In this document: one piece after another, positions 20,022-55,861 of the stretch
Layout of the letters: each line of letters begins with the position of its first letter
Position numbering within the stretch: position 1 is the stretch's first letter
NCBI GenBank assembly: GCA_027459505.1
Contig: DAIDIE010000043.1
Location: 163,281 to 227,280, forward strand
Direction: 5' to 3'
Source of the DNA: Acidobacteriota bacterium
Lineage (GTDB): Bacteria > Acidobacteriota > Terriglobia > Terriglobales > SCQP01
DNA length: 64,000 nt
Notes under the pieces: generated by a model
What the model was told of the DNA's origin: nothing
Databases searched by the model: none
What the model saw: the letters and a program-made list of their open reading frames with translations, nothing else
Program-made: the position numbers and the translations under genes

Positions 20022-20040
20022 CAATGTCTGATAATGGATA
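20022..20040 (+). repeat. attL: 19-bp core, XerC arm plus central region
   Basis: CAATGTCTGATAATGGATA, identical to 55832-55850. Within it, 20024-20034 aligns to the XerC arm of dif and 20035-20040 (TGGATA) to the central region. The following 11 nt (ACAGGTCCCTT) do not resemble a XerD arm and are taken to be phage-derived. Confidence 0.85.
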
Positions 20041-20088
20041 ACAGGTCCCTTCAACGTTTCCCATTGCGGTGCCCTCAACGTCCACACT

Positions 20089-20373
20089 CTACTTCCGGCG
20101 CGGTGCCGCTGTCAACCTCGCGGGAGTAGCGGCCTTGAGCCTTCGTCGCTTCCACTGCGCGAGGTAGGCCGGGTAGGCCTTCCTGCAACCGCGGCACACG
20201 GCTCGTCCCGTCGCGCGTTTATGCCGCCCGCATCGATCGCACAACCCGAGCCGGCGGCGCCGTCGGCGCGTGCGTTGCATCGCCTCTCGCGCGCTGGCCA
20301 GGCACCGCTCACAGCGCGACCGGCCGGGTGCTGCGGAGGCCAAACAGCTCGAACACTTCTTCCGTGGTGGCAT
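20089..20373 (-). CDS. Small four-CxxC zinc-ribbon protein
   Basis: About 94 residues from ATG 20373 (MPPRKKCSSC...). Four CxxC pairs are spaced through a very Arg/Lys-rich chain (CSSC, CERC, CDRC, CRGC), consistent with two zinc ribbons binding nucleic acid. A GTG six codons upstream is an alternative start. It lies just inside attL, transcribed toward it, separate from the phage operons. Function unknown; a regulatory or DNA-binding role is inferred. Confidence 0.55.
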   Translation of the reverse strand: MPPRKKCSSCLASAAPGRSRCERCLASAREAMQRTRRRRRRLGLCDRCGRHKRATGRAVCRGCRKAYPAYLAQWKRRRLKAATPARLTAAPRRK

Positions 20374-21036
20374 CGGCCAGCAATATACCACACCAGCGGC
20401 GGAGGGTAACCCTCCTTACTTTTGCTGTCCGTTTCGGACCATTCTGAGTCCGTGCGGAGTTGAAGCGTCCCGCTTCCGTTTCCAGCCTTGGTCCTCGATG
20501 CATATTCACTTCAATGTTTACTTCAATGTTTGTGGAATCCGCGAAAGCGGCCGCTCGCGATAGGCCGGGCGGGGGAGAGCCCCGGGGGAGGGCGTTCCTC
20601 CGCGTGCAATGCTCGCGGCGCGACCGAGAGCAAATAAAAATCGAGAAATTACAGCGTTCGATGCAGAAATGGCTGCAAGTCGTTGATGTCACGCGAGTTG
20701 CGACGCGCGGAAAACGCGAAGCCACGCCGGTACGGCGCACTCCGGTTGGCGATGCTGCGATTGACGAATGGCGCTAAGGATGCGGCTGAGGCGGCCGCCG
20801 AAGGCGGCCGCCGGGAATTAGGCGAAATTCGGGCAATTTATAGGCGTTTTTCGGCAGAGAGTCGCAAAATCGGCGAAAAGCGCTGCGACACAGGCGTTTT
20901 CGGATACTGCGATCCGTAGACTGCGCGTTGCGGGGCTGTTGGCGGCGCTTATCTTGCCGATTCCCACGTGTGAGGGGCGCTTGTGCACTCGCAGCGATGG
21001 ACAACGGAGCCGGATCGGCGTAATTTCAAGTCACTC
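20374..21036. other. Left-end control region of the prophage
   Basis: No supported gene. It holds a tandem 12-bp repeat (20508-20531), two copies of the palindrome GGCGGCCGCC (20790-20799 and 20803-20812) that can fold together, and an AT-richer stretch (20813-20900) that may contain promoters. A regulatory or replication-origin role is possible but unproven. Confidence 0.45.
20508..20531. repeat. Tandem direct repeat ACTTCAATGTTT x2
   Basis: Two perfect, directly adjacent 12-bp copies (20508-20519, 20520-20531). An 11-bp match (ACTTCAATGTT) recurs at 45045-45055 in front of the secreted moron gene. On the minus strand the copies contain TTGAAG, a possible -35, followed 16 nt later by TATGCA. 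Confidence 0.7.
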
Positions 21037-21384
21037 ATGAGTCAGAATCCCGGCAGTCACGCGCACCCGGACGCTTCTGGCGCCGCGCCTCGCGTGGAGG
21101 CGCCCCTCGCGATCGAGCTCGACTCGATGGGCTGCGCAGTGCGGGTGTACGGGCGCCTGATCCGGCTCCCGGCGTCCGAATACCGGGTGCTCGCGCTGCT
21201 AACCGCGCGACCACTGAGGTGGCATACGGCAAGCAGCCTCGCCGAGACGGCGGCGCTGGGCATGAACGCGCTTCGGTGCGCGATATGCAGCTTGCGCATG
21301 AAGCTGCCGCCTGGAACGATCGCCAGCCGGTACCGTCTGGGCTACCGTATCTCGCCGGTGGCGATGAAGGCCTCACTCAATTAG
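21037..21384 (+). CDS. Winged-helix DNA-binding protein (OmpR/PhoB C-terminal type)
   Basis: A 115-residue protein. Residues from about 35 to the end match the transcriptional-regulatory C-terminal fold: VRVYGRLIRLPASEYRVLAL (strand then helix), HTASSLAETAALGMNALRCA (recognition-helix region), RYRLGYRIS (wing). There is no receiver domain, so it is a stand-alone regulator and the only candidate transcriptional regulator I recognise in the prophage. A frame extends up to GTG 20983, but ATG 21037 is preferred. It precedes the chain of small overlapping genes. Confidence 0.65.
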   Translation: MSQNPGSHAHPDASGAAPRVEAPLAIELDSMGCAVRVYGRLIRLPASEYRVLALLTARPLRWHTASSLAETAALGMNALRCAICSLRMKLPPGTIASRYRLGYRISPVAMKASLN

Positions 21385-21797
21385 CCATCCTGTGCACTGC
21401 CTGCCGGATTTCTCCGTCACCGCAACAGGGCAAGTGGCGAAGGGTGTGCGGCACCTGACCTAACGGTCAGATTATGTCTAAAAAAAACAATTGCCGAGGC
21501 CGGCGAAAACGCGCGCACAGTGGGAGGTGTGCTCGCGCGCTTCCCGAGGCTAACCTGCCTTGACCAGCGCGTGACGCGGCGCCCCGGCGGCGCCGGCGAC
21601 AACGGGGAACACATCGCCACGGCAACGGCGTCGCCCTTCGGGGCCACCAGCCAGAGCCCATGCGACGCAAGTAGTCCGTTTGGCGATCCGGCGCCGCTTC
21701 CAATCCTTCCAGGACCAGGCGTCGCGGGCTCGATACGACTAGGGCCGCGATCTTGTCGTCTCCACGTTCGCGCACCCGTCTATCTTCCCCTTCCCGT
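21385..21797. other. Gap with a small palindrome, no confident gene
   Basis: CTGACC-TAAC-GGTCAG (21455-21470) is an operator-like palindrome directly before ATG 21474, which opens a frame of only 29 codons. A 93-codon plus frame (21520-21801) ends with an ATGA overlap on the next gene, but its second half has low third-position GC. A 127-codon minus frame (21467-21850) has more balanced composition. Neither is convincing. Confidence 0.4.
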
Positions 21798-22091
21798 ATG
21801 AATCGAACAGCTTCCGCCGGAACGCCGGTGCTGACACCGAGCCGTCGCATCGCGTATTACGCCTCCGCGCGCGTTCGTAGCCGGTTGCTGCGCAATGAGG
21901 CACGGCTTGTCTGCGAGCACGGGCGCGAGTACTTGATTCTTTTGCGAGAGCCCCCCGAGGTCGAACAGCGGCGCCACATCGACTCGGGACCGCCGGCGCC
22001 GGGCCAGACCGATATCCTCCGATTCGCACACGTCGCCGGAGACAAACACCTTTGGGCCGCCGCGCGCGTACGCGTCGAGGCCTTCGCGTGA
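21798..22091 (+). CDS. Small phage protein, unknown
   Basis: 97 residues beginning MNRTASAGTPVLTPS, with high third-position GC supporting coding. No recognised domain. It is the first of five genes joined by 4-nt overlaps: its stop overlaps the GTG start of the next (GTGA at 22088). Confidence 0.55.
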   Translation: MNRTASAGTPVLTPSRRIAYYASARVRSRLLRNEARLVCEHGREYLILLREPPEVEQRRHIDSGPPAPGQTDILRFAHVAGDKHLWAAARVRVEAFA

Positions 22092-22306
22092 AGGGCGGCC
22101 GACGCCCCTGTCGAGAAAGCGGCGCGCCGCTTTCGCATTCCGTAAGGCAGGCCATCGAGGCCATCGGCGATGCGACCAGCGAGGCCATCACGACCTCAGA
22201 ACGCGACATGTTTCCTCAGGACGCGGCGGCGCTGCTTGATGTACTAAAGCCGCTGCGGGCCATTCGAAATACGGTAGACACACTACTGGAGGCCGACGGG
22301 CAATGA
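22088..22306 (+). CDS. Small phage protein, unknown (GTG start)
   Basis: 72 residues. The GTG start overlaps the upstream TGA (GTGA), and the stop overlaps the next ATG (ATGA at 22303). The second half (SHSVRQAIEAIGDATSEAITTSERDMFPQDAAALLDVLKP) is helical. No family recognised. Confidence 0.6.
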   Translation: MKGGRRPCRESGAPLSHSVRQAIEAIGDATSEAITTSERDMFPQDAAALLDVLKPLRAIRNTVDTLLEADGQ

Positions 22307-22482
22307 GAGCCGTCTGCCTGCACATGATGTCGCACTGGATCGCCGGACGCCTGCTGTGCAATTACTGCTTTTCGGACCTGACTCCGGATCGGCTTCGCGC
22401 ACCCGAGCGCAAAACGGCCGCGCCGGCAACGCCCGCACGCGGGGCGGACACTCGCGAGCAGTTGGAGGACTTTTTCAGATGA
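22303..22482 (+). CDS. Small His/Cys-containing phage protein, 59 residues
   Basis: Starts MRAVCLHMMSHWIAGRLLC and ends REQLEDFFR. It fits exactly between neighbours through ATGA overlaps at both ends (22303 and 22479), which is the main support. The Cys/His residues near the N-terminus (C5, H7, H11, C19, C22) could bind a metal. Unknown function. Confidence 0.6.
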   Translation: MRAVCLHMMSHWIAGRLLCNYCFSDLTPDRLRAPERKTAAPATPARGADTREQLEDFFR

Positions 22483-22730
22483 ACATCGAAGTGGGATCGG
22501 CAGAAGGCGCGGGCGAACGCTTCATAGGCGTCCGGTTCAGCGGTGAGGGCGCGGCGTTTGAAGCCACCATGCGTATTGAGGACGCCGAAGCGCTCTCGCG
22601 TACCATCGCCGCGGAGGTGCAGCGGCTGCGGCCTCAAGCGCTGATCGTGGCGCCCCCTCCTGCGAAGGACCTCGGAGAGGCGCTGCAACGCGTCGACGCG
22701 GCGATGGCCGCCGTCAAGCAGGTCAATTGA
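22479..22730 (+). CDS. Small phage protein, unknown
   Basis: 83 residues beginning MNIEVGSAEGAGERFIGVRF. ATGA overlap with the gene before and TTGA overlap with the gene after. A beta-rich N-terminal half is followed by a helix (EDAEALSRTIAAEVQRLRP). No family recognised. Confidence 0.6.
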   Translation: MNIEVGSAEGAGERFIGVRFSGEGAAFEATMRIEDAEALSRTIAAEVQRLRPQALIVAPPPAKDLGEALQRVDAAMAAVKQVN

Positions 22731-22942
22731 GCCGGCGCCGGCCGCGGACGCTGCTTTCGGCGCTCGGGCGCCTGGCGCGAGACCGCCGCGTGTCCGCCGG
22801 CATCCAGATTCGCGCGTGCGAGCTGCTTATGGTCGTGCACGGCTTCAAGTTGCCGGCGCCGGCCGCGCCGGTGAAGCGAGGGAAGCCGACGAAGGCCGAC
22901 CGAGAGGACGGCGCGCGGCTACGGAGGCTGCTGCACGCGTAG
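22727..22942 (+). CDS. Small basic phage protein, TTG start
   Basis: 71 residues starting with TTG in a TTGA overlap with the preceding stop, then SRRRPRTLLSALGRLARDRR. Rich in Arg and Lys, suggesting nucleic-acid binding. The TTG start is supported by the same overlap pattern elsewhere in this phage (26899, 52596). Confidence 0.55.
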   Translation: MSRRRPRTLLSALGRLARDRRVSAGIQIRACELLMVVHGFKLPAPAAPVKRGKPTKADREDGARLRRLLHA

Positions 22943-23045
22943 TCGACGCCAGCGGCTGCAACGATTTTTGTTGTACAACCATCTCGGCCGCGGGGGCCGA
23001 TATATACCCCGCTCCGCGGCGGCAAGCGCCGCATAGGAGAACAGA

Positions 23046-23588
23046 ATGCGAACGATTGCTGCAGGAAATCTTGCGGGGCCCCCGCAGGTCTCCAACACCG
23101 CCATCACGACCGCTCAGATTTTTGCGATTTACGCCAACCAAGCCGCGACGACCACGCCTGTCCTGGTCACACTGCCTGGCAGCTTGCGGTTTGACGGCAA
23201 GCCGTTCCGGCTGAGGGCCTCCGGATGGGCCACCGTCGGCGGCACGTCTCCGACGCTGAACGTGACACTCTACGAAGGCAGCTCGTTGACCCCGGGGAGC
23301 AACACCGTGCTGGCGGCGCTCGGGAGCGCCCAGGCGGTCACCACGGCCGCCAGTTACCCGTGGGCGATTGAGGCCGTCCTGCAGGGAGACAGCAAGAGCA
23401 AGATTCTGCAGGGGCGCTTTTCCGTGACGCTCGATAACGTCGTCAGCGCATGGGCCGCGCTCACCAACGCCCCGACCAGCATCGATCTCTTGACCGAAGG
23501 TAGCTTGCAATTCTGCGTGGGCGTGACTTTCGGGGTGGCCAACGCCGCCAACCTCGCGCAGTTGGACGCGCTGATCATCGAGGGCTAA
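23046..23588 (+). CDS. Putative phage structural protein, beta-rich
   Basis: 180 residues, mainly small and beta-forming (LRFDGKPFRLRASGWATVGGTSPTLNVTLYEGSSLTPGSN), resembling decoration or minor virion proteins. A clear ribosome-binding site (TAGGAG) precedes the ATG. TTGTAC and TATATA around 22970-23005 may form its promoter. It opens the late transcription unit. Function inferred only from composition and position. Confidence 0.6.
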   Translation: MRTIAAGNLAGPPQVSNTAITTAQIFAIYANQAATTTPVLVTLPGSLRFDGKPFRLRASGWATVGGTSPTLNVTLYEGSSLTPGSNTVLAALGSAQAVTTAASYPWAIEAVLQGDSKSKILQGRFSVTLDNVVSAWAALTNAPTSIDLLTEGSLQFCVGVTFGVANAANLAQLDALIIEG

Positions 23589-23656
23589 CGTTCCCGACCA
23601 GCGGCGCGTGACTCCCTTCGCGGCGCGCGCCAATCTTCTCCTCTCCCCGTCTCCTT

Positions 23657-23887
23657 ATGGACCCGTTGCCTTTGCCCCTCCTCCGGCCGCGCCGGCGCGG
23701 CATCTTCACGTCTTCGCTGCGCAAGCGTGCGCCGCAGCCGTGCTCATTCCACCAGTTCCGCGCGGCGGCTATGGAACGGCTGCAGGCGCGGCCGGGCCTT
23801 GCGGAGCTGCCACGCAAGGAGCGGCGCCGCATCGCGTCGGAATGGGCGCGACGCGCCAAGAAGGCGCAGCGGCAGCAACGGCCGTAG
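23657..23887 (+). CDS. Small basic phage protein
   Basis: 76 residues; the second half is a strongly basic helix (RKERRRIASEWARRAKKAQRQQRP). No domain recognised. It lies between the beta-rich protein and two other small genes upstream of the terminase, the usual place for small terminase or accessory packaging subunits, but no TerS signature is visible. Confidence 0.45.
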   Translation: MDPLPLPLLRPRRRGIFTSSLRKRAPQPCSFHQFRAAAMERLQARPGLAELPRKERRRIASEWARRAKKAQRQQRP

Positions 23888-23919
23888 GCCGCACGTTTAC
23901 CACGTTCTACAGGACACCC

Positions 23920-24252
23920 ATGGCTCAAGTGCACGACACCGCCGCCCACGCGCTGGGAACACCGAAACGCCGCGAGGCGACGGCCGCGGCCAGCAAGCGC
24001 GAGAAGGGCGGAAAGCCGAAGCGCCGCGTCACCGGCATGCGGATTCACAAAGCCGCCGACGGCAGCTACAGCGTGCGGCATGAGCACGAAGGCGAACAGA
24101 CGGCGGCCGAAGCGCCAACGATGCTGCCCGACACCGACGCGCTGCACGACCATATCGAGGCGCAGATGGGCGAGCCGAACCCAGGAGAGGACCAGGACGA
24201 GGACAACGAGCCCGTCAGTGGGCAAGGAGGGGCTGATGGCCAAGCGCAATAA
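23920..24252 (+). CDS. Small charged phage protein
   Basis: 110 residues from ATG 23920 (MAQVHDTAAHALGTPKRREA). A basic N-terminal half (SKREKGGKPKRRVTGMRIHK) is followed by an acidic tail (GEPNPGEDQDEDNEPVSG). The frame runs further upstream without coding character. Its 3' end overlaps the next gene by 17 nt. Confidence 0.55.
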   Translation: MAQVHDTAAHALGTPKRREATAAASKREKGGKPKRRVTGMRIHKAADGSYSVRHEHEGEQTAAEAPTMLPDTDALHDHIEAQMGEPNPGEDQDEDNEPVSGQGGADGQAQ

Positions 24253-24445
24253 CCCAAGCCTCTACCGCGCTCTGCACCACCTGCGCGAGGGAGGCCTCCA
24301 TAAGGCGCTCCACGTTCCGCTCGATGAAGACATTCCGGAGGCGCGCGTCGAGCGAGCCACGCACTCGCCGAACCCCCACGTGGAGCACATGGCGCGAATG
24401 GCTCTGACGATGGAGGGATTCCACCATACCGGCAAAAAGAAGTAA
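24236..24445 (+). CDS. Small His-rich phage protein
   Basis: 69 residues, MAKRNNPSLYRALHHLREGG..., preceded by a strong Shine-Dalgarno (AAGGAGGGG). It ends 10 nt before the terminase gene, so it is probably co-translated with packaging functions. No family recognised. Confidence 0.6.
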   Translation: MAKRNNPSLYRALHHLREGGLHKALHVPLDEDIPEARVERATHSPNPHVEHMARMALTMEGFHHTGKKK

Positions 24446-24455
24446 AGCCACGGGC

Positions 24456-26399
24456 GTGGCAATGCCGGTGGCGCCAGAAGCGCCAGCAAAGCAGCGCCGA
24501 GGGCGGCCGCCTAAAGCCGGGGTCAGCGACCACGACCGCGAATGGCTGCGCTGGCGCGCAATGACAGATCTGTACTTCCTCTGCAAGGAAGTGCTCGGCT
24601 ACCGGCTGCTGACCGAGGAGACGCATCGCGAGCTCTGCGACGCGTTCGTGCATAAGGATTCGAGCTGGCGTTGCGCGGCATGCGGCGCGATATTCATTCC
24701 CGACCTGGTTTATCAACCAGGGCTGCGCGCCTTGGCTGATGGGACATGGTCTCTGCACCCGAACGGCCAGCGCGCCCGCGGCGACAGGTGCGAATGCGGG
24801 GGTCTGTTAAGGCGGCGATCGATACCCGACCAGGATGCGGTCAAGGAACGGCTGATCTTCTTTCCGCGCGGCGGCTTCAAGAGCTCCATCGACGTCGGTG
24901 ACATCGTTCAGTGGATCCTCAACTTTCCGGCTGAGGTCACGATCCAGCTCCTGACAGGAGACGAAGACCTGGCTTTCGCGCTCCAAGGCGAGGCCGTCGC
25001 GCATTTCGTCAGGAAAGAGACCGTCAGCGATCTGCAGGCGCTCTTCCCGGAGCTTTGCGTCGCCAGCGACCGCGGTACGACAGAAGAATTTGTTTGCCCG
25101 CTCCGCAAGGCGTCGCCCAGCGCGGCGGGCAAGAAAGACCCGACGCTGCGCTCAAGTTCCCTATTGGGGAGCGCCGCTGGTTGGCACCCGTGGATCATGA
25201 AATTCGATGATCCAGTCACGGAGACCAACAGCGAGTCGGAGTACATGCTTGGGAAGATATGCGATCGCCGCAACGCGGTGCGACCGCTGCTGCGCATTGG
25301 AGGGTATACCGATCAGATCGGCACGACCTACGACGCCAGCGATGCCAACTGCACGGTACTCCGTGAAGCGATGCAGGCAGCCGGTATGGAGGCCATGCCG
25401 GATTGGGGCCGCACACAGATGGGCGACTTCGCCTACTTTGCACGGCCGGCCTGGGAGCTGACGCCCGAGGCGAAAGCCAAAGGGCTCGACAAGCCGGAAC
25501 GGTTGATGGAGATCAAGCCGGGCGACGTGAAGCTGCTGTTCCCGGTTGACGGCGAAGGAAACCCGGCACAAACATTCGAGTTCCTCGCGAAGATGCGGGC
25601 GCCGTCGCGGCAGCGGTTACTGTGGGCGCAGTACCTGCTGAACCCCTACGCCGCCGCCGGCGCGGTGATCACGCGCGCGGAAATCGACGCGCTGCGCGTG
25701 CCGTGGACGCAGCTTCCGCAGCCGACGCAAGGTTACACCGTCCTCTGGTGGGACCTCGCGTACAGCAAGCCAGGCGCGAAGTGGGTACGCGACTACACCG
25801 TTGGCGTTTACGCCCAGGTGGTGTTCGACCGGCTGTTCGTGCTGAAGATCGTGCGCGGCAAGTTTTTGCCGGACGACACCGCTCACCAGATCGTGGCTGC
25901 CCAGCGCAGCATGCAGGCGGACCGGCTGTGCATCGAGGACACGCTGGGCAGCCGTTACCTGATGAACGAAATGTCACGTCAGGCGGAAACGATGCAGCTC
26001 GACTTCCGGCCGGAGTTCGTCACGATCGACGTGACGGAGCAAGCCAAGCTGATCCGCTACAACGAGCTGCAGCCGCTGGTGCGAACCAAGCGGCTTCTGT
26101 TCAGCGACCAGCTCGACCACTGGAGCGATACGGTGGACGAGATGACGCAGTTCCGGACCATCCGGCACAAAGACATTGCGGACGCGATCGGGCAGATCCG
26201 GCAGAAGTTCATGTCGACGTCGGTCGCCGTTCGTACACAAGCCCAAGTGGACGAGGATCTGCGGCGCAAAGACGCACACGACCGGGCCTACGGACTCGGA
26301 ATTTATGCTCCCGTAGTTGAGGAGCCTGCAGTCGCACCAGCTCCGGAGCCCGCGGCACCCTGGGGACTTGAGGACATCCTGGGAGGGCTGCGTGGCTGA
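24456..26399 (+). CDS. terL: Terminase large subunit
   Basis: A 647-residue packaging motor and nuclease that threads DNA into the prohead through the portal. The ATPase P-loop reads FFPRGGFKSS (K142), a variant of the usual GKS/T form also seen in short-tailed phages. RLIFFPRGG starts the ATPase core, and LLTGDEDLAFAL follows. The RNase H-like nuclease is marked by VLWWDLAYSKPG and LCIEDTLGSRYL. Unusual: about 45 residues between the N-terminal helix region and the P-loop contain C73xxC76 and C112xC114, a zinc-ribbon-like insertion. The downstream gene starts inside the last codons. Confidence 0.9.
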   Translation: MAMPVAPEAPAKQRRGRPPKAGVSDHDREWLRWRAMTDLYFLCKEVLGYRLLTEETHRELCDAFVHKDSSWRCAACGAIFIPDLVYQPGLRALADGTWSLHPNGQRARGDRCECGGLLRRRSIPDQDAVKERLIFFPRGGFKSSIDVGDIVQWILNFPAEVTIQLLTGDEDLAFALQGEAVAHFVRKETVSDLQALFPELCVASDRGTTEEFVCPLRKASPSAAGKKDPTLRSSSLLGSAAGWHPWIMKFDDPVTETNSESEYMLGKICDRRNAVRPLLRIGGYTDQIGTTYDASDANCTVLREAMQAAGMEAMPDWGRTQMGDFAYFARPAWELTPEAKAKGLDKPERLMEIKPGDVKLLFPVDGEGNPAQTFEFLAKMRAPSRQRLLWAQYLLNPYAAAGAVITRAEIDALRVPWTQLPQPTQGYTVLWWDLAYSKPGAKWVRDYTVGVYAQVVFDRLFVLKIVRGKFLPDDTAHQIVAAQRSMQADRLCIEDTLGSRYLMNEMSRQAETMQLDFRPEFVTIDVTEQAKLIRYNELQPLVRTKRLLFSDQLDHWSDTVDEMTQFRTIRHKDIADAIGQIRQKFMSTSVAVRTQAQVDEDLRRKDAHDRAYGLGIYAPVVEEPAVAPAPEPAAPWGLEDILGGLRG

Positions 26400-26646
26400 G
26401 GGCGAACGCAAGTTCTTTGGCGCGTTCGAGCGCGGGACCTATCGCGGGCCAGGGTCCGATTACGAGGTCCACATCGTGCCGGTGGTTGATTCCGCCGCGG
26501 ATGAACCGCAAGCGGCGGAGGGCCACGCGCTAGCGGGCATCTGCACCTGCCATTACAACGTTGTCTACCTGCGGGAACAAAATTGGCCGACCGTTGTGCA
26601 TGACGCCCCCGAAGGGCAAACCTATGTTGACGAGCTTCTCCGATAA
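26392..26646 (+). CDS. Small phage protein, GTG start
   Basis: 84 residues beginning (V)AEGERKFFGAFERGTYRGPG, with GTG 26392 overlapping the terL stop by 8 nt. Contains a short Cys/His pair (CTCHYN). Placed between terminase and portal; no recognised domain. Confidence 0.6.
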   Translation: MAEGERKFFGAFERGTYRGPGSDYEVHIVPVVDSAADEPQAAEGHALAGICTCHYNVVYLREQNWPTVVHDAPEGQTYVDELLR

Positions 26647-26902
26647 GGCCGTTGAGCCGCGGATAGTGAGCGTGCTGGATCCGTTCTTGCGGTTGCCCGA
26701 AGTCTGGCGCCGGCTGCGCCGGCCCGAAGGTGTGCACATCGCCGCAGAACCGCCGGCCGGGGCGCTCGCCGGCGAAGTGCCGCGCACTCCGCAATGCGTG
26801 CGTATAGTGCAATGGCTGCCGAACGAACATCCGGCCGCGCCGGTTGATGGGGCTTCCGGGACGGACTGCCTCTCGGTAACCGTCGAGGTGGGCAGCGCTT
26901 GA
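26624..26902 (+). CDS. Small phage protein, unknown
   Basis: 92 residues from ATG 26624 (MLTSFSDKAVEPRIVSVLDPF). Overlaps the preceding gene by 23 nt and the following portal gene by a TTGA tetranucleotide. No family recognised. Confidence 0.5.
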   Translation: MLTSFSDKAVEPRIVSVLDPFLRLPEVWRRLRRPEGVHIAAEPPAGALAGEVPRTPQCVRIVQWLPNEHPAAPVDGASGTDCLSVTVEVGSA

Positions 26903-48409: not shown

Positions 48410-48410
48410 G

Positions 48411-48501: not shown

Positions 48502-48660
48502 ATGAGCAAGTCGATTGTGCAGAAGATGTACGAGCATGCGTGCAAACGCTGCTCTCACGTGTGGCGCAGTCTACTAAAGCGGCCGAAAAAGTGTCCGCGT
48601 TGCGATGACCCTTACTGGGATCAGCCGCGAATGCGAGCTAAACGTTCGAAAACGCAGTAA
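48502..48660 (+). CDS. Small zinc-ribbon protein, 52 residues
   Basis: MSKSIVQKMYEHACKRCSHVW then KKCPRCDDPYWDQPR: a two-CxxC zinc ribbon of a type common in short prokaryotic and viral DNA-associated proteins. Directly under the operator-containing promoter, so its expression is probably regulated by lysogeny. Confidence 0.7.
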   Translation: MSKSIVQKMYEHACKRCSHVWRSLLKRPKKCPRCDDPYWDQPRMRAKRSKTQ

Positions 48661-48740
48661 ACATGCGGCTTTTCTGACTATCACGACATCTCTTCACACG
48701 CGCGGCGGCCAACCTTGGCGGCCGCGCTTCCACACTCCCC

Positions 48741-49085
48741 ATGCCCAGGCTGCCCGAACCGGACTATTGGCAGTTGCGCCGCGATGACCTGACCAGGTTG
48801 CTGGCCAGTTCCACGCGCGAGCAGGCTTTGAGCCTCGCCGTGAGTTGCGCCTGGCACCTGCGCAACCTGGAACAGCAACACCGTCAGCTCGGCGCCAATG
48901 TGCGCGACACCAGGGAGCGGCTGGCCGAGATCCGCGCGCGGATCGCCGAGCTGGAACCCGCGCAAATGCGATTACCGCTGGACGGCGCACAGACCGATAC
49001 CGCCTTCGGTCTGCCTGCGGCTATGCCGCTGCGGTCGGCCGAATCGGGAAAGCCAGGCTTTCACCGGTTGCAGCGCCGGGCGTAG
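48741..49085 (+). CDS. Small coiled-coil phage protein
   Basis: 114 residues; MPRLPEPDYWQLRRDDLTRL then a long coiled coil (HLRNLEQQHRQLGANVRDTR, RLAEIRARIAELEPAQMRLP). Second gene after the regulated promoter. Function unknown. Confidence 0.5.
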   Translation: MPRLPEPDYWQLRRDDLTRLLASSTREQALSLAVSCAWHLRNLEQQHRQLGANVRDTRERLAEIRARIAELEPAQMRLPLDGAQTDTAFGLPAAMPLRSAESGKPGFHRLQRRA

Positions 49086-49643
49086 ATCGAGCCATCCTGA
49101 TGCCGACCGGTACGGTCGGCGCTCTCTTTCGCCCATCCGGCGGCTTCCGTTACACCCATGCGTTTGGCACTCAACGTGCGTTTAGCTCCTTTGAGGATCA
49201 GGAAGCAACGTCTTGCGGCGCGGCAGTTGCCTTCGACGCTGGTCAGGGAATGGGCGCGGCGGTGGGTACGGTCCTCGGCATCGGCCGCCGCTTTGGGCGG
49301 CCCTCCACCTCTCCGGCTGGATATCTCTCGTGAAAAAACAGAGCTGAGGACAAAGACCTGACGGTTTCGGTACTGAACTGACTGCGTTTCGGCAGCAACG
49401 CGACTCACCTCGGCACTTACACGACTGCCACCGGTAACCAGACGACATCCGGACCAAGGCGCACGGCGCCCCGGAGCCGGCGAAACGGCGGTAGTGACGT
49501 CTCGCGGCGTCCTTCGGCGCAACGCCAGGGGCCGATTAGGGGCCTTCCGGGCGTGGCGAGGCATGGCTTGGGGTGCCGGAGCGGCTTGCGGCGGCCTGGA
49601 ATCGAACCTGGGACGATTTGAGGAGGCTCTTAAATGGGCGGCG
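49086..49643. other. Gap between convergent phage operons
   Basis: No confident gene. A 67-codon plus frame (49158-49361) is Arg-rich but has no clear ribosome-binding site. 49588-49616 contains a GGTTCGATTCC-like T-arm on the minus strand, but no matching acceptor or anticodon stem. The gap separates the rightward block from the leftward early operon. Confidence 0.45.
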
Positions 49644-50876
49644 TCAGCGCCGGAGGGGGGGGCTATCGGCAGGAGCAGGCGAAGAAGGGAAGAGCGTGCG
49701 GATCACCCAGGCAGGGAAGCGTGCTTCTTCGAGCTGGTGCCGCACCACGCGCAGAACCTGGACATCCGTCATCGGGGCGTCGACCGCGCCGGCGACGACG
49801 TCGTCGAGCAGGCGCAGGGCCGGGCGCCCGAATGTCTGGGCCCCTGACTCGCCGAGCTGCTCGATCGAGCGGACAAACGTCGCGCGCAAACGGCTCGCGG
49901 CCGTCTGCGTGAACTGACCGGTGCGCGTGAAGAGCACGCGCTGCGCACCGCGGCGCAATGCGCCATCCGCGCAACGCTGCGGCTTCTCATTGACTACGCG
50001 GAAGACCGCGGGAATAAAGCCGCGGCCGGCGCAGGTGTCACACGCCACATGCCCGCGCCGGCAATGGCTGGAGTGGCAACGCACCTCGCGGCCGCGACGG
50101 TCGAGCTGGCCGCTCTTGCCGGTGCCAGTGCAGCGGCTACAGAGCTCGGCTGCCTGACCAGTGCCATTGCAGGCGCTGCAATCGTCGGCGCCGACGCGCT
50201 CGATCGCGCAGTTCGCCGCGTACACGGTGCGCACGCTGACGTGACAGCGCTCGGCCACCGTCTTCTGCGTCACGTCGACGTGTCCGCGACCGAGACCGCG
50301 GATGAAATAAAAAATGAGCACGGTCAGATGGTCGGGCTCCAGGCCCAGGTGCCGGATCCACTTGGGCACCTCGCCGAAGCCCGCCGGAACCTCGACGATG
50401 CGGCCCTCGGCAGCGCGACTGCCTGGTTCCGGCTGGGCTTCGATCTCCAGGCCGTTCCTCCGCCATTGGTTTGGCCGGTTAGCTCCAAGTCGGCGGCGCT
50501 GCAGGTACTGCCGGTTCGCCGGCGTCTCGATCGCCTTCACTCGCCGGCTGCCGCGATCATAGGAGCTGAAATGGGCGGCATTGGAGAAGCGCGTGCCCCA
50601 TTCCGTCCATGTGGTGCGGGCGACGCCGCAATGCTCGGCGAGCGCGGCCTGGCTGACCTCCGCCGGCGCCGCAAAATAAGCGTCCTTCGCGCCGTCGGGC
50701 TCGATCGCGCGGGCCGCGATCAGGGAATACATCACCAGCGCGAGCCGTTTCGGGCCGGCAAAGTAGCTCTCGTTGACCACGGCTGGACGCGAGGATCCAG
50801 CCGGCAGAAAGTACTTTCGCTGCACGGCCAGCGGCGCCGAGTAGTCGACCGCGCGGGATGGAGAGGTGGTCTTCAT
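49644..50876 (-). CDS. Putative phage replication protein: two HTHs plus DnaJ-like zinc fingers
   Basis: 410 residues. An N-terminal helix-turn-helix (SQAALAEHCGVARTTWTEWG), a second (VTQKTVAERCHVSVRTVYAA), then Cys motifs of the DnaJ type (CSACNGTGQ, CSRCTGTGK, CDTCAGRGF), and a helical C-terminus. Last gene of the leftward operon, the position of replication initiators in many phages. Winged helices plus zinc fingers suggest a DNA-binding initiator or regulator, but no replicase motif is visible. Its start overlaps the previous stop (ATGA). Confidence 0.6.
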   Translation of the reverse strand: MKTTSPSRAVDYSAPLAVQRKYFLPAGSSRPAVVNESYFAGPKRLALVMYSLIAARAIEPDGAKDAYFAAPAEVSQAALAEHCGVARTTWTEWGTRFSNAAHFSSYDRGSRRVKAIETPANRQYLQRRRLGANRPNQWRRNGLEIEAQPEPGSRAAEGRIVEVPAGFGEVPKWIRHLGLEPDHLTVLIFYFIRGLGRGHVDVTQKTVAERCHVSVRTVYAANCAIERVGADDCSACNGTGQAAELCSRCTGTGKSGQLDRRGREVRCHSSHCRRGHVACDTCAGRGFIPAVFRVVNEKPQRCADGALRRGAQRVLFTRTGQFTQTAASRLRATFVRSIEQLGESGAQTFGRPALRLLDDVVAGAVDAPMTDVQVLRVVRHQLEEARFPAWVIRTLFPSSPAPADSPPLRR

Positions 50877-51079
50877 CCGGAAGAGCGGCCGCCCTCCTCG
50901 AGCGTCACGCGCACTGTCCAGCGCCTGCCCGTGCTTACCTCAGCGACTTGCGCGTAGGCGGATCGCCGGTTGCCGTCCAGCTGGCGAGCGGCGAGCAGAG
51001 CAAGCGCGAGCGCGGCGCGGGGCGATGACTCCAACACGCGGAGCGTTTCGTCGGCATCGAGTTGGATCAAGTACTCCAT
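50873..51079 (-). CDS. Small phage protein, unknown
   Basis: 68 residues from ATG 51079 (MEYLIQLDADETLRVLESS). ATGA overlap with the replication-like gene. The longer frame to 51184 lacks support. Beta-rich C-terminus (VAEVSTGRRWTVRVTLEEGG). Confidence 0.55.
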   Translation of the reverse strand: MEYLIQLDADETLRVLESSPRAALALALLAARQLDGNRRSAYAQVAEVSTGRRWTVRVTLEEGGRSSG

Positions 51080-51134
51080 GGGCGATCGCAGTGCGGCGGC
51101 CGCTCTCTCACCTTTGCGCGGCCGCCGCTGGCGG

Positions 51135-51713
51135 TTATGCGGGTTCCACCTCCTCTCGCGGAATCGGACTTCCAAGCCCTCCACAGTCAGCAGCCAGCGC
51201 AGGACCTGTCACGAAGGCGCCGACGAGATCAGGCGGCGACGGCGATTCGGCGCTCTCGCGCTCGGGCCAGTGCCATGTGCCGGGCTCCCGCGACGCGGAG
51301 TACAAGACGCTCGTCTTTCGCAACAGCGGACGCTCCTCCGGGTGTCCGTCGTTCAACCCGTCGGTGAAGACTTGCAGGTTGACGCAGTTGCCCGAATGCA
51401 CGGCGACGACGATCGCCGGGCGCTCCGGGAGTACTTCTCCTTCGCTTCTCCCTCTGTAGGGACCGATGTCCCCTGGTTGGGGAACGTAATGCACAATGCG
51501 GCCAATCGATGACATCCATCCTCCTCTCGCACGGGTTGGGGCGGCGCCACGCTGCTCGCGGCGCCGCAGTTCGTAATAGACCTCCAGGAGTTCCTCGTGC
51601 AGCTCCTGGCGGTAAGGGTTGCCCTCCGACAATGCCTGGTGGAGGGCTTGCAGGTTCGCGCCATGCATGGCCAGCGCGACTACGGACATCGAACGGAGTC
51701 CGCACGCGATCAT
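51135..51713 (-). CDS. Phage protein with 'GTWHWP' domain
   Basis: 192 residues from ATG 51713 (ATGA overlap with the upstream gene). The N-terminal 67 residues are helical (LHQALSEGNPYRQELHEELLEVYYELRRRE). From about 68 on, MSSIGRIVHYVPQPGDIGPY...CVNLQVFTDG...PGTWHWPE is a domain often seen alone in phage genomes, of unknown function. The two parts may be a fusion, or a second start at MSSIG may be used. Confidence 0.6.
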   Translation of the reverse strand: MIACGLRSMSVVALAMHGANLQALHQALSEGNPYRQELHEELLEVYYELRRREQRGAAPTRARGGWMSSIGRIVHYVPQPGDIGPYRGRSEGEVLPERPAIVVAVHSGNCVNLQVFTDGLNDGHPEERPLLRKTSVLYSASREPGTWHWPERESAESPSPPDLVGAFVTGPALAADCGGLGSPIPREEVEPA

Positions 51714-51979
51714 TCGCGCGCCTCCGGGGAAGCAACCACGTGAACCGCAGGGACCGGCACCGGCGCGCTGACGGGGCGGCCGCAATGGCCGCAGGCACAG
51801 CCGGCCGCGCGATACGGCGCGGGCTCGACGAGACGAATGGCAAAGCCCTCCAGCAACGCCTGGAACATCCCGTGGACGTGCTCTGGCGCAATCGGAAGAT
51901 CGAGAAAAAACAGGGAGCCCGGCCCCGGAACGTCACAGGTGACCGAGCGGCCACAATCGCATGAGATCTTCAGCTTCAT
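51710..51979 (-). CDS. Small Cys-rich phage protein
   Basis: 89 residues: MKLKISCDCGRSVTCDVPGPG, a beta segment, then CACGHCGRPVS. Cys pairs at both ends could form one zinc site. Overlaps neighbours by 4 nt on both sides (51710-51713 and 51976-51979). Confidence 0.6.
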   Translation of the reverse strand: MKLKISCDCGRSVTCDVPGPGSLFFLDLPIAPEHVHGMFQALLEGFAIRLVEPAPYRAAGCACGHCGRPVSAPVPVPAVHVVASPEARE

Positions 51980-52596
51980 GGCTGGGGCTCCCGCCAGGAC
52001 CTCTCGTCTCCCCGCAGGGAGAAGATCTCTGGGAAATCGGCCGTGATCGCCACTTTCGCTTCAAGTTCAATGCGCGAGCTCCCATCGGGATCCAGCTCCG
52101 CATAGCGCTTGAGGAAGCGGAAACGGGCCAGTGCCGGATTTTCGGGATCGAGCGCCTGCGGCATAACGACAGGAATCGCTCCGTCGCACCAAGCGCCCAT
52201 CAATGCGCGGTGCTCAGTGGCGAAGGCGATTTCGTCGGCGATCTGGATCGATGCGGGGTTTTCGGGCCTCAGGCCGAATCGCTGCCAGATCTGGCGTTGC
52301 ACTTGCTGCTCGATCGATGCGAACTGCGGGAGGGCGGCCTTCAGCGGGCGCACCATGTCGCCGACGTACGCTTCAGCCGCATCATGCAGCAGTGCGTGGA
52401 GCGCCTCCTCCTCACGCACCAAGCGCGAGGCCAGCACGGCGTGCTGCGCAACGCTATAAAAACGGCGGCAGTGGCCGCCGAAGCGGCAGATATTGGATAG
52501 CGCATGAGCGATGTCGATCACGCGGATCGATAACCACAGGTCATTCGCCAACAGGTCGACCTCGAGGCCGGTGTAGGTGCGAATGCGGATGCTCAA
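51976..52596 (-). CDS. HD-domain phosphohydrolase, YfbR-like
   Basis: 206 residues. IRTYTGLEVDLLANDLWLSI with IDIAHALSNICRFGGHC, then YSVAQHAVLASRLV and ALLHDAAEAYVGD carry the HD metal motif (H...HD...). Phage and bacterial homologues are 5'-nucleotidases or phosphohydrolases acting on (deoxy)nucleotides. In an early operon it could adjust nucleotide pools or degrade a host signal. TTG 52596 is chosen: it has GGAGG 6 nt upstream and overlaps the previous stop (TTGA), and homologues begin near here. Confidence 0.75.
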   Translation of the reverse strand: MSIRIRTYTGLEVDLLANDLWLSIRVIDIAHALSNICRFGGHCRRFYSVAQHAVLASRLVREEEALHALLHDAAEAYVGDMVRPLKAALPQFASIEQQVQRQIWQRFGLRPENPASIQIADEIAFATEHRALMGAWCDGAIPVVMPQALDPENPALARFRFLKRYAELDPDGSSRIELEAKVAITADFPEIFSLRGDERSWREPQP

Positions 52597-52736
52597 TTGC
52601 GCCTCCAGGGGCGAGAGTTCGACCAATCGATCAGGCCAACGACGCCCAGCGCGGCTGAGGCCCCGAAAGCGGCGACCGCCGCGCACAGCAAGAGCGAGCG
52701 CAGCGATCGCCGGCAGAATTGAGTGGAGCGGCTCAT
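52593..52736 (-). CDS. 47-residue membrane protein
   Basis: MSRSTQFCRRSLRSLLLCAA followed by a hydrophobic segment (VAAFGASAALGVVGLI) and a short polar tail. Joined to neighbours by ATGA (52733-52736) and TTGA (52593-52596) overlaps, which support the frame. Unknown function. Confidence 0.55.
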   Translation of the reverse strand: MSRSTQFCRRSLRSLLLCAAVAAFGASAALGVVGLIDWSNSRPWRRN

Positions 52737-54199
52737 GCGCGTGCCGCCTTGCGCGCCTTGGCCGGCGTGGCCGACGGTTCGCCGGCAGACTGCTTGGTGA
52801 GGGGCTCCGCAGCGCAGGAAATGCTGTGCCGCTCGCAAAACTTTACTGCTTCCGACACACCGCTCCATGACGGCTCCAACGAGAACCGGCGCAGCAATAG
52901 CGCGCGCACCGCTACGACGCGCAGATCGCCTGGCTTAAGCTTGGCGGCGCCGCCCTCGGGGTCTCTGCCGAAGTCGAAGCCGAGATACTCGACCGCGGGT
53001 TTGCTCATGTAGCCGCCGAGCAAGGCCGTAACCGTCAAGCGCATCATGTCGGGCGGCCAGCCAACCAGCTGCTCCAAGGCCCATTCCTCAATGGCCTTCA
53101 GCGCGCGCCGATGGGACTCCAGCGCGCGCCGCTTCTTTTCACGCTCACGCTTCTGCTCGGCCTTCTGCTTCTCCGCGTCCGGACCTTGCGCTTTCGAGCG
53201 TCGTGCACCGTTGTGGGCCGCTTGATCCGCGCAGACATGGCGCACCGCGTCGCGGCCAGATTTGACCAGAACCAGGTTCTGCTCGCAGCCCGGGCAGCCG
53301 CGCTTGCGCTCGCCATCCCACAGCACCATAGGCTGCCGCAGCTCCCTGTACTCTTTCTCCGTGATCACTCGGCCGGCGTGCGCCTCGGCCCAGCCGCACA
53401 TCTTGGCGCGGAAGCACTCCACATTCGTGCAGAACCCGCGATCTTTGGCTTTGTTCTCCAGAATGGGGAGGGGAAGCTGCCCATCGCGGAACACACGGTC
53501 TTCGCAGCCTTCGCAGGACGGCGTCGACTTCGCCAAGGAAAACACCGCCTCGCGCAGGTCGATGAAGCTCTGTCCCATGCGTTCGCGAATGCGATCGAGC
53601 GAGTAATGCTCGCTCGCCGCGTCGCGTGCGAGGCGCACGCGTTCCTCGGGATCTCGGACGCGCGCGATCAGACGCGCGGCCTTCAGCGCGAGCTCCTTGG
53701 ACTCGACCTTCGCCTGTATCTCCCCATCGAGATCGAGCAGCGCCAGGCGCTCGCGCACATAGTCGTCGGACTTGCCAATGCGCTGTGCCAACGACTTCAC
53801 GTCGCGCCCGGCGCCGCCGGCGCTGACGTAAGACTGGAACGCGCGCGCCTCCTCCAGCGGCGAAAGGTCGGCGCGCTGCATGTTTTCGACCAGCATCGCT
53901 TCCGCGGCGTCCTGGTCGTTCATCTCTTGAACGATGCAGGGAAGCTCCTCAAGGCCGGCAAGCCGCGCCGCCCGGTAGCGGCGATCACCGGCAATGATCT
54001 CGTAACCGCCGCTCCCGGCCAGCGGGTGAGGGCGCACGACTAAAGGCTCTATGACGCCCTTTTCTTTAAGCGATGTCGCGAGCTCCGCGAGCTCGACATG
54101 GTCGAAGAGCTTGCGTGGATTCAGCTGCGAAGGAAAAAGTTCGTCGATCGGCAGGTTGCGCAATAACGCGCCTGCCGCGCCACTTTTGTGATTGGTCAT
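52733..54199 (-). CDS. ParB/Spo0J-family protein with Cys-rich insert
   Basis: 488 residues. ParB N-terminal domain: LPIDELFPSQLNPRK, AELATSLKEKGVIEPLVVRP, then AGDRRYRAA (usual GERRxRA) and VENMQRADLSPLEEARAF. The HTH part is SLAQRIGKSDDYVRERLAL. The distal half holds Cys clusters (CEGCEDRVF, CTNVECFRAKMC, CPGCEQN) and a long basic coiled coil. Such proteins bind centromere-like sites and partition plasmids, or act as regulators. No ParA is present in the window. It could reflect a phage-plasmid lifestyle or a repurposed regulator. Confidence 0.8.
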   Translation of the reverse strand: MTNHKSGAAGALLRNLPIDELFPSQLNPRKLFDHVELAELATSLKEKGVIEPLVVRPHPLAGSGGYEIIAGDRRYRAARLAGLEELPCIVQEMNDQDAAEAMLVENMQRADLSPLEEARAFQSYVSAGGAGRDVKSLAQRIGKSDDYVRERLALLDLDGEIQAKVESKELALKAARLIARVRDPEERVRLARDAASEHYSLDRIRERMGQSFIDLREAVFSLAKSTPSCEGCEDRVFRDGQLPLPILENKAKDRGFCTNVECFRAKMCGWAEAHAGRVITEKEYRELRQPMVLWDGERKRGCPGCEQNLVLVKSGRDAVRHVCADQAAHNGARRSKAQGPDAEKQKAEQKREREKKRRALESHRRALKAIEEWALEQLVGWPPDMMRLTVTALLGGYMSKPAVEYLGFDFGRDPEGGAAKLKPGDLRVVAVRALLLRRFSLEPSWSGVSEAVKFCERHSISCAAEPLTKQSAGEPSATPAKARKAARA

Positions 54200-54510
54200 T
54201 CAACACCCCCTCGATGGCGTGATGTGGCTCCGGAAGACGGCACGGTCCGCCCGGCGGAGCTCCGGACGGCTGCGGACGGGACAAAAAGCATTTGCTGCAC
54301 CGGCGCGGCCGGCTGCGCACGCATCCGCGCACCAATCGCGCTCAGATGGTTCCAGCTGCGGCGTTGACGGCCAGCGTCGACGGCGGTCGCCGACTCGAAA
54401 CCGCAGGCGAGGCAAACGACCTGGTGCGCCGCAGGGTCGAACAGAGGACGCACCTGGTGCACGTCGCGCGACGCGCACCGCGGGCACGGGGAAAGACCGG
54501 AGCGCTTCAT
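54196..54510 (-). CDS. Lar-like zinc-ribbon protein
   Basis: 104 residues: MKRSGLSPCPRCASRDVHQV, VVCLACGFES, then RRSWNHLSA. The CPxC...CxxCG...WN pattern is that of Lar/restriction-alleviation-like small proteins often encoded by phages. Function is inferred; Lar of Rac prophage modulates type I restriction. ATGA overlaps at both ends. Confidence 0.55.
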   Translation of the reverse strand: MKRSGLSPCPRCASRDVHQVRPLFDPAAHQVVCLACGFESATAVDAGRQRRSWNHLSAIGARMRAQPAAPVQQMLFVPSAAVRSSAGRTVPSSGATSRHRGGVE

Positions 54511-54809
54511 TGCGACCTCCGGTAGTAGCCGAACGCCGGCACGCTGCAGAGATGACTGCACTGGTTCGGCAGCGCCGCGCTCCGGCCCGGCCGGATCTCG
54601 ACCGCGCCGACGCACTCGCAGTTGTCGCCGCAAACAGGGCAGGAGTGGCGGGCCCGCTTGCTCGGTTGCACCGGCCGGCGATCGAGCCACCGGGCGATGT
54701 TCACAAGCGCGTACGAGCCGCAGCCGATGCAGCTCGCCCCGGAAACCGAGATCTGGTGACAGTCCAGGCAGAGGGTCGCGCGCTCCAGGGGGATGAGCTC
54801 GTTATTCAC
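54507..54809 (-). CDS. Zinc-ribbon phage protein (GTG start)
   Basis: 100 residues from GTG 54809 (NNELIPLERATLCLDCHQIS). Contains CLDC, CIGC and CPVC/CEC clusters, enough for two zinc sites. Overlaps the upstream gene by 8 nt and the Lar-like gene by 4 nt. Unknown. Confidence 0.55.
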   Translation of the reverse strand: MNNELIPLERATLCLDCHQISVSGASCIGCGSYALVNIARWLDRRPVQPSKRARHSCPVCGDNCECVGAVEIRPGRSAALPNQCSHLCSVPAFGYYRRSQ

Positions 54810-55614
54810 GGCGCAGCTCCTCTCGCAGGAGGCTGTCGCAGCGTTCGGCTTTCGCGCTGGGGGAATAGCAGAGGTCGCCGCGATCACGACAGACAAAACC
54901 CGGGACCTCGACCACACGCGGCACGTCGTCGCCGCCTTCAAGTTGGAGGCCGCGGATCACGACCGTGGAGCGCGGCAGCTTGACGATGAGAACTGACGGC
55001 TCAACGAGCGATTTGCCCACCGTCGCAGGCCCCGAAAATGGTGCGAGCGCGCGGTACAGCGCCCAGCCGTTTAGCGGAATGCCAAGCACTCGTACAGCCA
55101 CGTCTTCGATGGACCGCTCAGCGAACCCGCGCCAGCACCAGGGACAGCCTTGTACGCCGTCGCTGCCTTCGACCTGGCATTTGTAGCAACCGCGGCCGCC
55201 GCACGCTTCGCAAGGGATCGCTCCCGTATTGCGGCAGGCCACGCAGTCTGCTACCGGACGGCCCAACAGCGCGCGACGCAGGCCCTCCACGCTCGTGCGG
55301 ATCGGCGGATCGGAGAAGCGGGCCGCGAGAAGGCCGCATACATAGGCGATCCGGCGCGCCGCGGCCGCGCGGGATATAGCGGGCTCGAGCGCGACATTGG
55401 TTCCGGCCGGATCGCGGGCAGTCACGATCATTCCGCCCGGAACACGGTCAGTCACGATCGCAACTCGAAGGTCGCTCGCGATGAGGCGAGCGGCAGGATG
55501 ATCGCCGTCTATGGCACAGAAAGCCTCATCACAGCCGGAGCCCAGCCACCACAGCACTTGAGCCAGGCTCGCGCTGCCGCTCGGATGATCCTGGGGAACG
55601 GGATGCGCATTCAT
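54802..55614 (-). CDS. Protein with DnaJ-type zinc finger, first gene of the early operon
   Basis: 270 residues. The central segment CVACRNTGAIPCEACGGRGC...CPWCWRGFAE is a DnaJ-like CxxCxGxG zinc region without a J domain. N-terminal part helical (LAQVLWWLGSGCDEAFCAID), C-terminal part beta-rich. GGAGG sits about 10 nt before ATG. As the promoter-proximal gene next to the operator pair, it may be regulatory. Function unknown. Confidence 0.65.
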   Translation of the reverse strand: MNAHPVPQDHPSGSASLAQVLWWLGSGCDEAFCAIDGDHPAARLIASDLRVAIVTDRVPGGMIVTARDPAGTNVALEPAISRAAAARRIAYVCGLLAARFSDPPIRTSVEGLRRALLGRPVADCVACRNTGAIPCEACGGRGCYKCQVEGSDGVQGCPWCWRGFAERSIEDVAVRVLGIPLNGWALYRALAPFSGPATVGKSLVEPSVLIVKLPRSTVVIRGLQLEGGDDVPRVVEVPGFVCRDRGDLCYSPSAKAERCDSLLREELRRE

Positions 55615-55745
55615 AGCCGCGCACCTCCGCCGCTAAGCGCGCGCACCTTTTCGCTGGCGCGGGTGGTGCCGGCAAAAATTTGATGTGTGGATTTTTCGGG
55701 GGAATTGTTCGATACTAGCGGCGCGGCCGCGTGAGCGGACGCCAC

Positions 55746-55799
55746 ATCCCCAGCGCGCGCTAGGTGCCCTCGACAAGTTTCCCAGCGTGCGCTGGGGAT
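55746..55799. promoter_or_regulatory. Two near-identical 16-bp palindromes, 32 bp apart
   Basis: CCCAGCGCGCGCTAGG (55749-55764) and CCCAGCGTGCGCTGGG (55781-55796) differ at two positions and are each near-palindromes. The outer parts also form an imperfect inverted repeat (55746-55761 with 55784-55799, 15 of 16). Spacing of 32 bp is about three helical turns. Located between the leftward early operon and the right attachment site: candidate operators. Confidence 0.65.
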
Positions 55800-55816
55800 T
55801 GCTTGCTCAGCGGGCG

Positions 55817-55836
55817 CATTGGCCGTTTGGCCAATG
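55817..55836. repeat. 8-bp inverted repeat abutting the attachment core
   Basis: CATTGGCC-GTTT-GGCCAATG. Its right arm overlaps the first bases of the 19-bp core. It is on the phage side of the junction and could be an accessory recombination element or chance. Confidence 0.5.
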
Positions 55837-55861
55837 TCTGATAATGGATATTATGTAAACT
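55834..55861 (+). other. dif-like XerCD site (attR)
   Basis: XerC-arm-like ATGTCTGATAA (55834-55844), central TGGATA (55845-55850), XerD-arm-like TTATGTAAACT (55851-55861). Against E. coli dif the XerD arm matches 9/11, the centre 5/6 and the XerC arm 5/11 including the inner ATAA. The shared prophage repeat ends exactly at 55850. Confidence 0.78.

What the first reader, a model, noticed from the sequence alone, without database searches (positions are those of the whole stretch)
20022..55861. Tailed-phage prophage integrated at a dif-like XerCD site, with no integrase of its own
The element is bounded by a perfect 19-bp repeat. At the right end this repeat plus the next 11 nt reads as a 28-bp dif-like site. 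The repeat stops exactly at the boundary of the 6-bp central region and the XerD arm, as XerCD exchange predicts: attB = XerC arm + TGGATA + TTATGTAAACT, attP = the same left part + ACAGGTCCCTT (no proper XerD arm). Integration at dif by XerCD is established for filamentous phages such as CTX-phi and TLC-phi and for the gonococcal genetic island. I know of few or no well-described tailed phages doing it. No tyrosine or serine recombinase is visible in the element.
Basis: partly seen in the sequence, partly recalled or inferred. Interest (0 to 1): 0.95.

Follow-up and report, generated by a model that had tools for sequence, protein, structure and literature searches.

The report
Tailed prophage inserted at host dif
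A 35.8-kb tailed-phage genome in which no integrase could be found sits exactly in dif, the site where this soil bacterium separates joined chromosome copies, and it was likely inserted there by the bacterium's own XerC and XerD enzymes, a trick best known from filamentous phages.

Summary
Confirmed. A 19-bp repeat bounds a 35.8-kb tailed prophage (TerL, SU10-type portal and adaptor, head protein, GH108 lysozyme, holin, ParB). The right copy completes the only dif found in the 4.06-Mb assembly. A dif matrix built from relatives alone scores it 46.6; the next site on its 227-kb contig is the prophage's own left end (16.7). Twelve of 14 held genomes of this acidobacterial family have exactly one dif match, and relatives show the empty site between the same two genes. 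The host encodes XerC and XerD. No tyrosine or serine recombinase was found in the element. attP is of the TLC-phage/GGI kind: good XerC arm and central region, no XerD arm.

New: two more genomes of the family, from two other genera, carry a related ParB gene directly against dif. Those elements keep the XerD arm instead, are only seen in pieces, are not shown to be tailed, and one lies beside an integrase and a tRNA. A distant portal relative sits near a tRNA with its own recombinase. XerCD action is inferred. Searches of open papers showed no tailed phage at dif. Verdict: new variant of the known Xer-exploiting elements.

The parts
20022..20040 (+). left copy of the 19-bp repeat
20024..20051 (+). 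attL: XerC arm (20024-20034), central region TGGATA (20035-20040), no XerD arm (20041-20051)
20041..55850 (.). prophage, 35,810 bp
24561..26399 (+). terminase large subunit (ORF opens at 24456)
   Evidence: phrog_38 E 3.3e-25; PF17289 E 3.1e-4, below its cut-off
26899..28968 (+). portal protein, SU10 type
   Evidence: PF23899 E 2.2e-16; 300 relatives at E <= 1e-3, capped
30357..31370 (+). major head protein
   Evidence: phrog_1357 E 3.8e-11
31998..32699 (+). head-tail adaptor, SU10 type
   Evidence: PF24175 E 6.6e-9
32635..35277 (+). beta-helix protein, possible tail spike
   Evidence: PF13229 E 1e-6; phrog_2234 E 3.6e-7
46907..47542 (+). lysozyme (GH108 and peptidoglycan-binding domain)
   Evidence: PF09374, PF05838
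47543..48004 (+). holin, 3 TM
   Evidence: PF11351 E 6.3e-10
49644..50876 (-). 410-aa helix-turn-helix and zinc-finger protein; relatives behind dif in G007
   Evidence: very weak VC1465-family match
51976..52686 (-). HD-type deoxynucleotidase
   Evidence: phrog_318 E 3.9e-56
52733..54199 (-). ParB with Cys-rich C-terminal part
   Evidence: PF02195 E 1.3e-27, PF17762 E 1.1e-15; alignment
55832..55850 (+). right copy of the 19-bp repeat
55834..55861 (+). attR = complete dif: XerC arm (55834-55844), TGGATA (55845-55850), XerD arm (55851-55861)
19301..19816 (+). host hsp20 gene, conserved neighbour of dif
   Evidence: PF00011
55910..56356 (-). host gene (weak Metal_resist match), conserved neighbour of dif

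Best explanation
This is a 35.8-kb prophage of a tailed phage lying exactly in the host's only dif site, most likely put there by the host's XerC and XerD recombining dif with a dif-like half-site on the circular phage genome. The inferred phage site (attP) has a good XerC arm and the same central region TGGATA but no recognisable XerD arm, as described for TLC phage of Vibrio cholerae and the gonococcal genetic island. Strand exchange in the central region would leave a complete dif on the right (phage XerC arm, host XerD arm), so chromosome dimers could still be resolved, and a crippled site on the left that FtsK-driven XerCD should not use, which would keep the lysogen stable. Excision would then need FtsK-independent activation, perhaps by a phage protein of the ParB module next to the attachment site. 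Shown: anatomy, single dif, empty sites, conserved neighbours, host XerC and XerD genes, no recombinase found in the element. Inferred: XerCD catalysis, circular intermediate, stability. Untested: any activator, induction, virions.
For: Repeat and complete dif; single dif in the genome and exactly one match in 12 of 14 family genomes, control pattern 0 in 14. Empty site hsp20 - dif - 55910 gene in G012 and in G013/L296 (same dif, probably one genome). Related ParB against dif in G003 and G007, each with an empty comparison: G002 for G003, L299 for G007, where 81% identity over 963 bp stops two bases past dif. In G003 both junctions share only GATATATTATGT, and the XerD arms beyond it differ by one base, the host-side arm agreeing with G002. 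In 397 genomes of the order the ParB profile's best genomes are these three (E <= 4.8e-111; the next is 2.8e-35). XerD over its NCBIfam cut-off; XerC best of its models but just under the cut-off (331.9 of 335.15). GGGNAGGG motifs point at dif from both sides in G000, G009 and G002. No recombinase found.
Against: No reads, induction or recombination data. The G003 ParB segment lies beside a tyrosine recombinase and tRNA-Gly, so the ParB-type phages are not all integrase-free. A 33% portal relative is near tRNA-Ser with its own recombinase. The elements in G003 and G007 keep the opposite arm and are not shown to be tailed. No dif-like site was found around other portal or ParB relatives in partial contigs. 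GC skew is unclear.
Confidence: 0.85

Rival explanations
1. The phage lineage normally integrates with its own tyrosine recombinase at a tRNA; here that gene has been lost or acts from elsewhere, and the dif junctions come from a later or accidental XerCD event.
For: G003 has ParB, a 237-aa gene and a tyrosine recombinase running into tRNA-Gly next to dif. Isolated ParB phages VarioGold and Aval have an integrase at the end of the ParB operon.
Against: In the window both ends are at dif, with no tRNA and no recombinase found; the two dif-half ends define a complete unit.
Confidence: 0.08
2. The element brings an unrecognised recombinase, outside the known families, that recognises dif-like DNA.
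For: Many element proteins have no family match.
Against: The site is the host's XerCD site to the base, and host XerC and XerD are present.
Confidence: 0.04
3. Assembly or binning error joined a phage to the dif region.
For: A 45-contig assembly without reads to check.
Against: Both junctions fall on the same exact dif half-repeat, the host genes on both sides are those of the empty sites, and two other assemblies have junctions at dif.
Confidence: 0.03

Closest known systems
TLC phage of Vibrio cholerae (TLC-type IMEX)
   Same: attP with a good XerC arm and central region and a divergent XerD arm; no integrase; complete dif restored (passages of PMC5357621).
   Different: A filamentous satellite (recalled); it encodes XafT (PMC9765430 passages), for which no convincing counterpart was found here.
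Gonococcal genetic island (GGI)
   Same: Large element at dif; XerC-binding site and central region like dif, divergent XerD-binding site; stable because FtsK does not activate that site (PMC5357621 passages).
   Different: An island with type IV secretion genes, not a phage.
Legionella LME-1
   Same: Phage-like element at the host dif using the host Xer enzyme (PMC9765430 passages).
   Different: Uses the single recombinase XerL; 22-bp att; the passages seen do not call it tailed.
Tailless Vibrio prophages (NO16 and relatives)
   Same: dif-like sites, proposed XerCD integration (PMC9966536 passages).
   Different: No tail; PMC11630473 says tailless prophages at dif regularly carry integrases, so the route is open, and that tailed prophages there use their own integrases.
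Tunturiibacter phage Tunturi_3
   Same: Best portal match among phage records, 41.7% identity over 85% of the query.
   Different: 97.6-kb record; how or whether it integrates was not examined.
Variovorax phage VarioGold and Acidovorax phage Aval
   Same: Isolated tailed phages with a large ParB in an early operon.
   Different: They carry their own integrase; attP of VarioGold is annotated beside it and the paper names tRNA-Ser as site.

Membership tests
IMEX (integrative mobile element exploiting Xer) | Integrated at the host's dif | tested here: met
IMEX (integrative mobile element exploiting Xer) | dif-like attP; dif restored after integration | tested here: met
   attL and attR read from the sequence; the circular form was not seen
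IMEX (integrative mobile element exploiting Xer) | No recombinase of its own | tested here: met
   limited to known families
IMEX (integrative mobile element exploiting Xer) | Integration depends on host XerC/XerD | not testable with these tools
   both genes present
TLC-type IMEX | Good XerC arm and central region, divergent XerD arm | tested here: met
   4 of 11 bases in the XerD arm, score -9.4
TLC-type IMEX | Own Xer activation factor (XafT / VC1465 family) | tested here: inconclusive
   18.7 bits against a cut-off of 70, 23 residues of an HTH only
Tailed phages (Caudoviricetes) | Terminase, portal, head protein, adaptor, lysis genes | tested here: met
Tailed phages (Caudoviricetes) | Makes tailed virions | not testable with these tools
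   no induction data

The most novel reading that the evidence does not exclude
A lineage of tailed phages in this acidobacterial family has given up integrases for the host's chromosome-dimer machinery, with a half-dif attachment site held beside the ParB operon that can carry either the XerC or the XerD arm; the phage ParB or its HTH partner serves as the FtsK-independent activator that decides when XerCD inserts or frees the phage.
Probability: 0.15. Interest if true: 0.87.

Novelty: new variant of a known kind. Interest (0 to 1): 0.72.

Why it matters
The Xer-exploiting elements in the papers I saw are filamentous or tailless phages, islands and one phage-like element. A tailed phage at dif would extend the capture of the host recombinases to the largest phage class and tie its lysogeny to control of the replication terminus and cell division. 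It also gives a concrete pair of sites and three comparable genomes in which to ask how an element without a XerD arm is inserted and freed, and whether ParB takes part.

Tried and rejected
Xaf-like activator: the only hint is HTH-level. The AlphaFold model of the 410-aa protein has mean pLDDT 42.9, so no fold search was run; a protein search returned only the query itself, with 7997 candidates scored.

Viral relatives: the portal alone gave none in viral contigs. A 23-row alignment gave 309 relatives, of which 80 were kept as loci; their 1.09 Mb of partial contigs held no full dif-like site above 16.0, against 41.7 or more for real dif sites. The same alignment gave none in genome contigs. 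ParB relatives: 23 loci from 22 of 396 sampled phylum genomes (the window's own locus left out of the scan) and 73 viral loci, none with a dif-like site over the thresholds.

GC skew: G000 left of the prophage +0.051 overall but -0.011 in the last 60 kb, right -0.128 over 8 kb; G009 +0.026 and -0.055 (48 kb each), positive again further right; G002 negative on both sides. Not usable as proof of the terminus.

Named relatives: of 80 loci of the neighbouring sigma-factor gene, 4 hold a full dif and 1 a half-site taken as chance. In the two closest, L294 and L295, the 55910 gene has no dif beside it, so the synteny is not universal.

Papers: ten searches; 41 was about TLC phage and XafT, 103 about VarioGold, the other eight aimed at phages or prophages at dif. 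No tailed phage at dif was seen in the listings or in the passages read; subscription papers and preprints are mostly not held. [quoted passage not shown] the passages seen do not say which phages, so older unnoticed cases are possible.
Full report
1. The site. The 19-bp repeat is exact and its two copies are 35,810 bp apart. The right copy completes a 28-bp dif, ATGTCTGATAA TGGATA TTATGTAAACT, at 55834-55861. The left end has the same XerC arm and central region followed by ACAGGTCCCTT. A matrix from the dif sites of eight relatives, window left out, ranks the right site first (46.6) and the left end second (16.7) on the 227-kb contig; the third scores 7.1.

2. It is the chromosome's dif. A pattern search of the 14 held genomes of the family gave exactly one match in 12 of 14, none in two incomplete ones (73% and 75%), and none for the backward control pattern. 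I looked at all 12 with up to 1.5 kb on each side. Nine have no match to an element protein and are flanked by hsp20 and/or the 55910 gene; G003 and G007 have a ParB gene against dif; the twelfth is the window, whose ParB lies 1.6 kb off. For most of the nine only one side was matched to the window's flanks; both sides match in G012 and G013 (window order), and in G009 both genes lie on one side. FtsK-guiding motifs (GGGNAGGG, the E. coli motif, recalled) run towards dif, forward:reverse left and right: G000 20:4 and 0:3, G009 4:1 and 0:8, G002 7:2 and 0:2, G003 5:0 and 0:0. Numbers are small and share the local base skew; GC skew itself is unclear. XerD (over its cut-off) and XerC (331.9 against 335.15) are encoded elsewhere in the genome. 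The family is acidobacterial: G002 C13 and G012 C139 have the lengths and dif of JAJYIU010000006.1 and JANWJU010000139.1.

3. Empty sites. In G012 (L020) and in L296 (DAIDIF010000056.1, the same dif as G013) the order hsp20 - dif - 55910 gene is unbroken, as it would be in the window without the element.

4. The element. It encodes TerL, an SU10-type portal and adaptor, a head protein, a beta-helix protein, a GH108 lysozyme, a 3-TM holin, an HD deoxynucleotidase and a ParB with a Cys-rich C-terminal part. That SU10 is a podovirus is recalled. Portal relatives occur in 2 of 14 family genomes, in 4 of 298 genomes of the order, both counts including this one, and in 309 stretches of viral contigs. 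Fifty element ORFs were scanned with Pfam and 20 with PHROGs, not every listed ORF; none matched a recombinase or transposase family convincingly (one sub-cut-off zinc-finger match at E 0.007 to an ISL3 transposase domain). Six-frame searches of the genome for PF00589 (7 matches) and PF00239 (none) placed none in the window.

5. Two more dif loci with related ParB genes. G003: host genes shared with G002 (same genus, empty), then dif, then ParB. The other junction is on contig C10: ACCGATAACTC GATATA TTATGTTAACC, then the 55910 gene. The two junctions share only GATATATTATGT; beyond it the ParB-side arm reads TTATGTCAACC and the host-side arm TTATGTTAACC, like G002's TTATGTTAACT. So the exchange lies in that 12-bp stretch, as XerCD predicts. 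Between dif and tRNA-Gly lie ParB, a 237-aa gene and a tyrosine recombinase whose frame runs into the tRNA; beyond are a Fic-type and an NRAMP-type gene. None of the G002 matches to this tRNA stretch is on its dif contig C13. The simplest reading, an inference, is that a prophage with both an integrase/tRNA site and a dif half-site recombined with dif. G007: 55910 gene, dif, a 153-aa gene, ParB, and further on a protein related to the window's 410-aa HTH protein (27% over 236 residues). Identity to the empty L299 stops two bases past dif. A second ParB contig of G007 begins inside a XerD arm. In 397 genomes of the order these three genomes stand apart by ParB profile (E <= 4.8e-111; next 2.8e-35, ordinary ParB). 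Only the window element is shown to be tailed.

6. Half-sites. The arm on the ParB side is the good one each time: XerC arm in the window, XerD arm in G003 and G007. The far side is degenerate in the window and in G003 and unseen in G007. The ParB proteins are 33-38% identical to the window's in the alignment.

7. How it likely works. Host XerC/XerD join dif and attP at TGGATA. The lysogen keeps one complete dif. The left end lacks a XerD arm, so FtsK-driven excision should be blocked, as reported for GGI (PMC5357621 passages). What frees the phage is unknown. TLC phage brings XafT (PMC9765430 passages); the VC1465-family match here is too weak to count.

8. Against generalising. The portal relative in G003 (33%) lies on contig C23, about 13 kb from a tyrosine recombinase that adjoins tRNA-Ser. 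So head genes and integration modules are exchanged. No dif-like site turned up around other relatives, in partial contigs.

9. Novelty. Integration at dif by host Xer enzymes is established for filamentous phages, GGI and LME-1 and proposed for tailless phages (passages); for microviruses I recall it and saw listings only. Eight searches of open papers aimed at this showed no tailed phage. It is a new variant of a known kind, on comparative evidence alone.

Noticed in passing
L176:4674-4701 (G196 contig C46, 40.4 kb): A contig with P22-type portal and coat genes carries CAGGTATTATGTAAA, the central region and XerD-arm part of that genome's dif (L041), without a XerC arm: a possible second, unrelated tailed phage with a dif half-site. 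It overlaps a listed ORF and may be chance.
   Followed up: partly
L029:5749-7367 and L030 (G003 contig C23): Second phage region in G003 with a 33% portal relative; a tyrosine recombinase adjoins tRNA-Ser.
   Followed up: partly
L016:9388-13950: dif, ParB, 237-aa gene, tyrosine recombinase and tRNA-Gly in 4.6 kb, which looks like a chromosome rearrangement between a prophage's dif half-site and dif.
   Followed up: partly
L174 (G007 contig C123, whole 5,070 bp): A second ParB module of G007 whose contig starts inside a XerD arm, as a tandem array at dif would give.
   Followed up: no
L016:14060-14315 and 17307-17625: Dispersed repeats of about 250 and 315 bp with many copies in genome G003.
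   Followed up: no
window 18016-18110: A tRNA-SeC gene is predicted about 1.9 kb left of the prophage, on the minus strand; it is not the attachment site.
   Followed up: no
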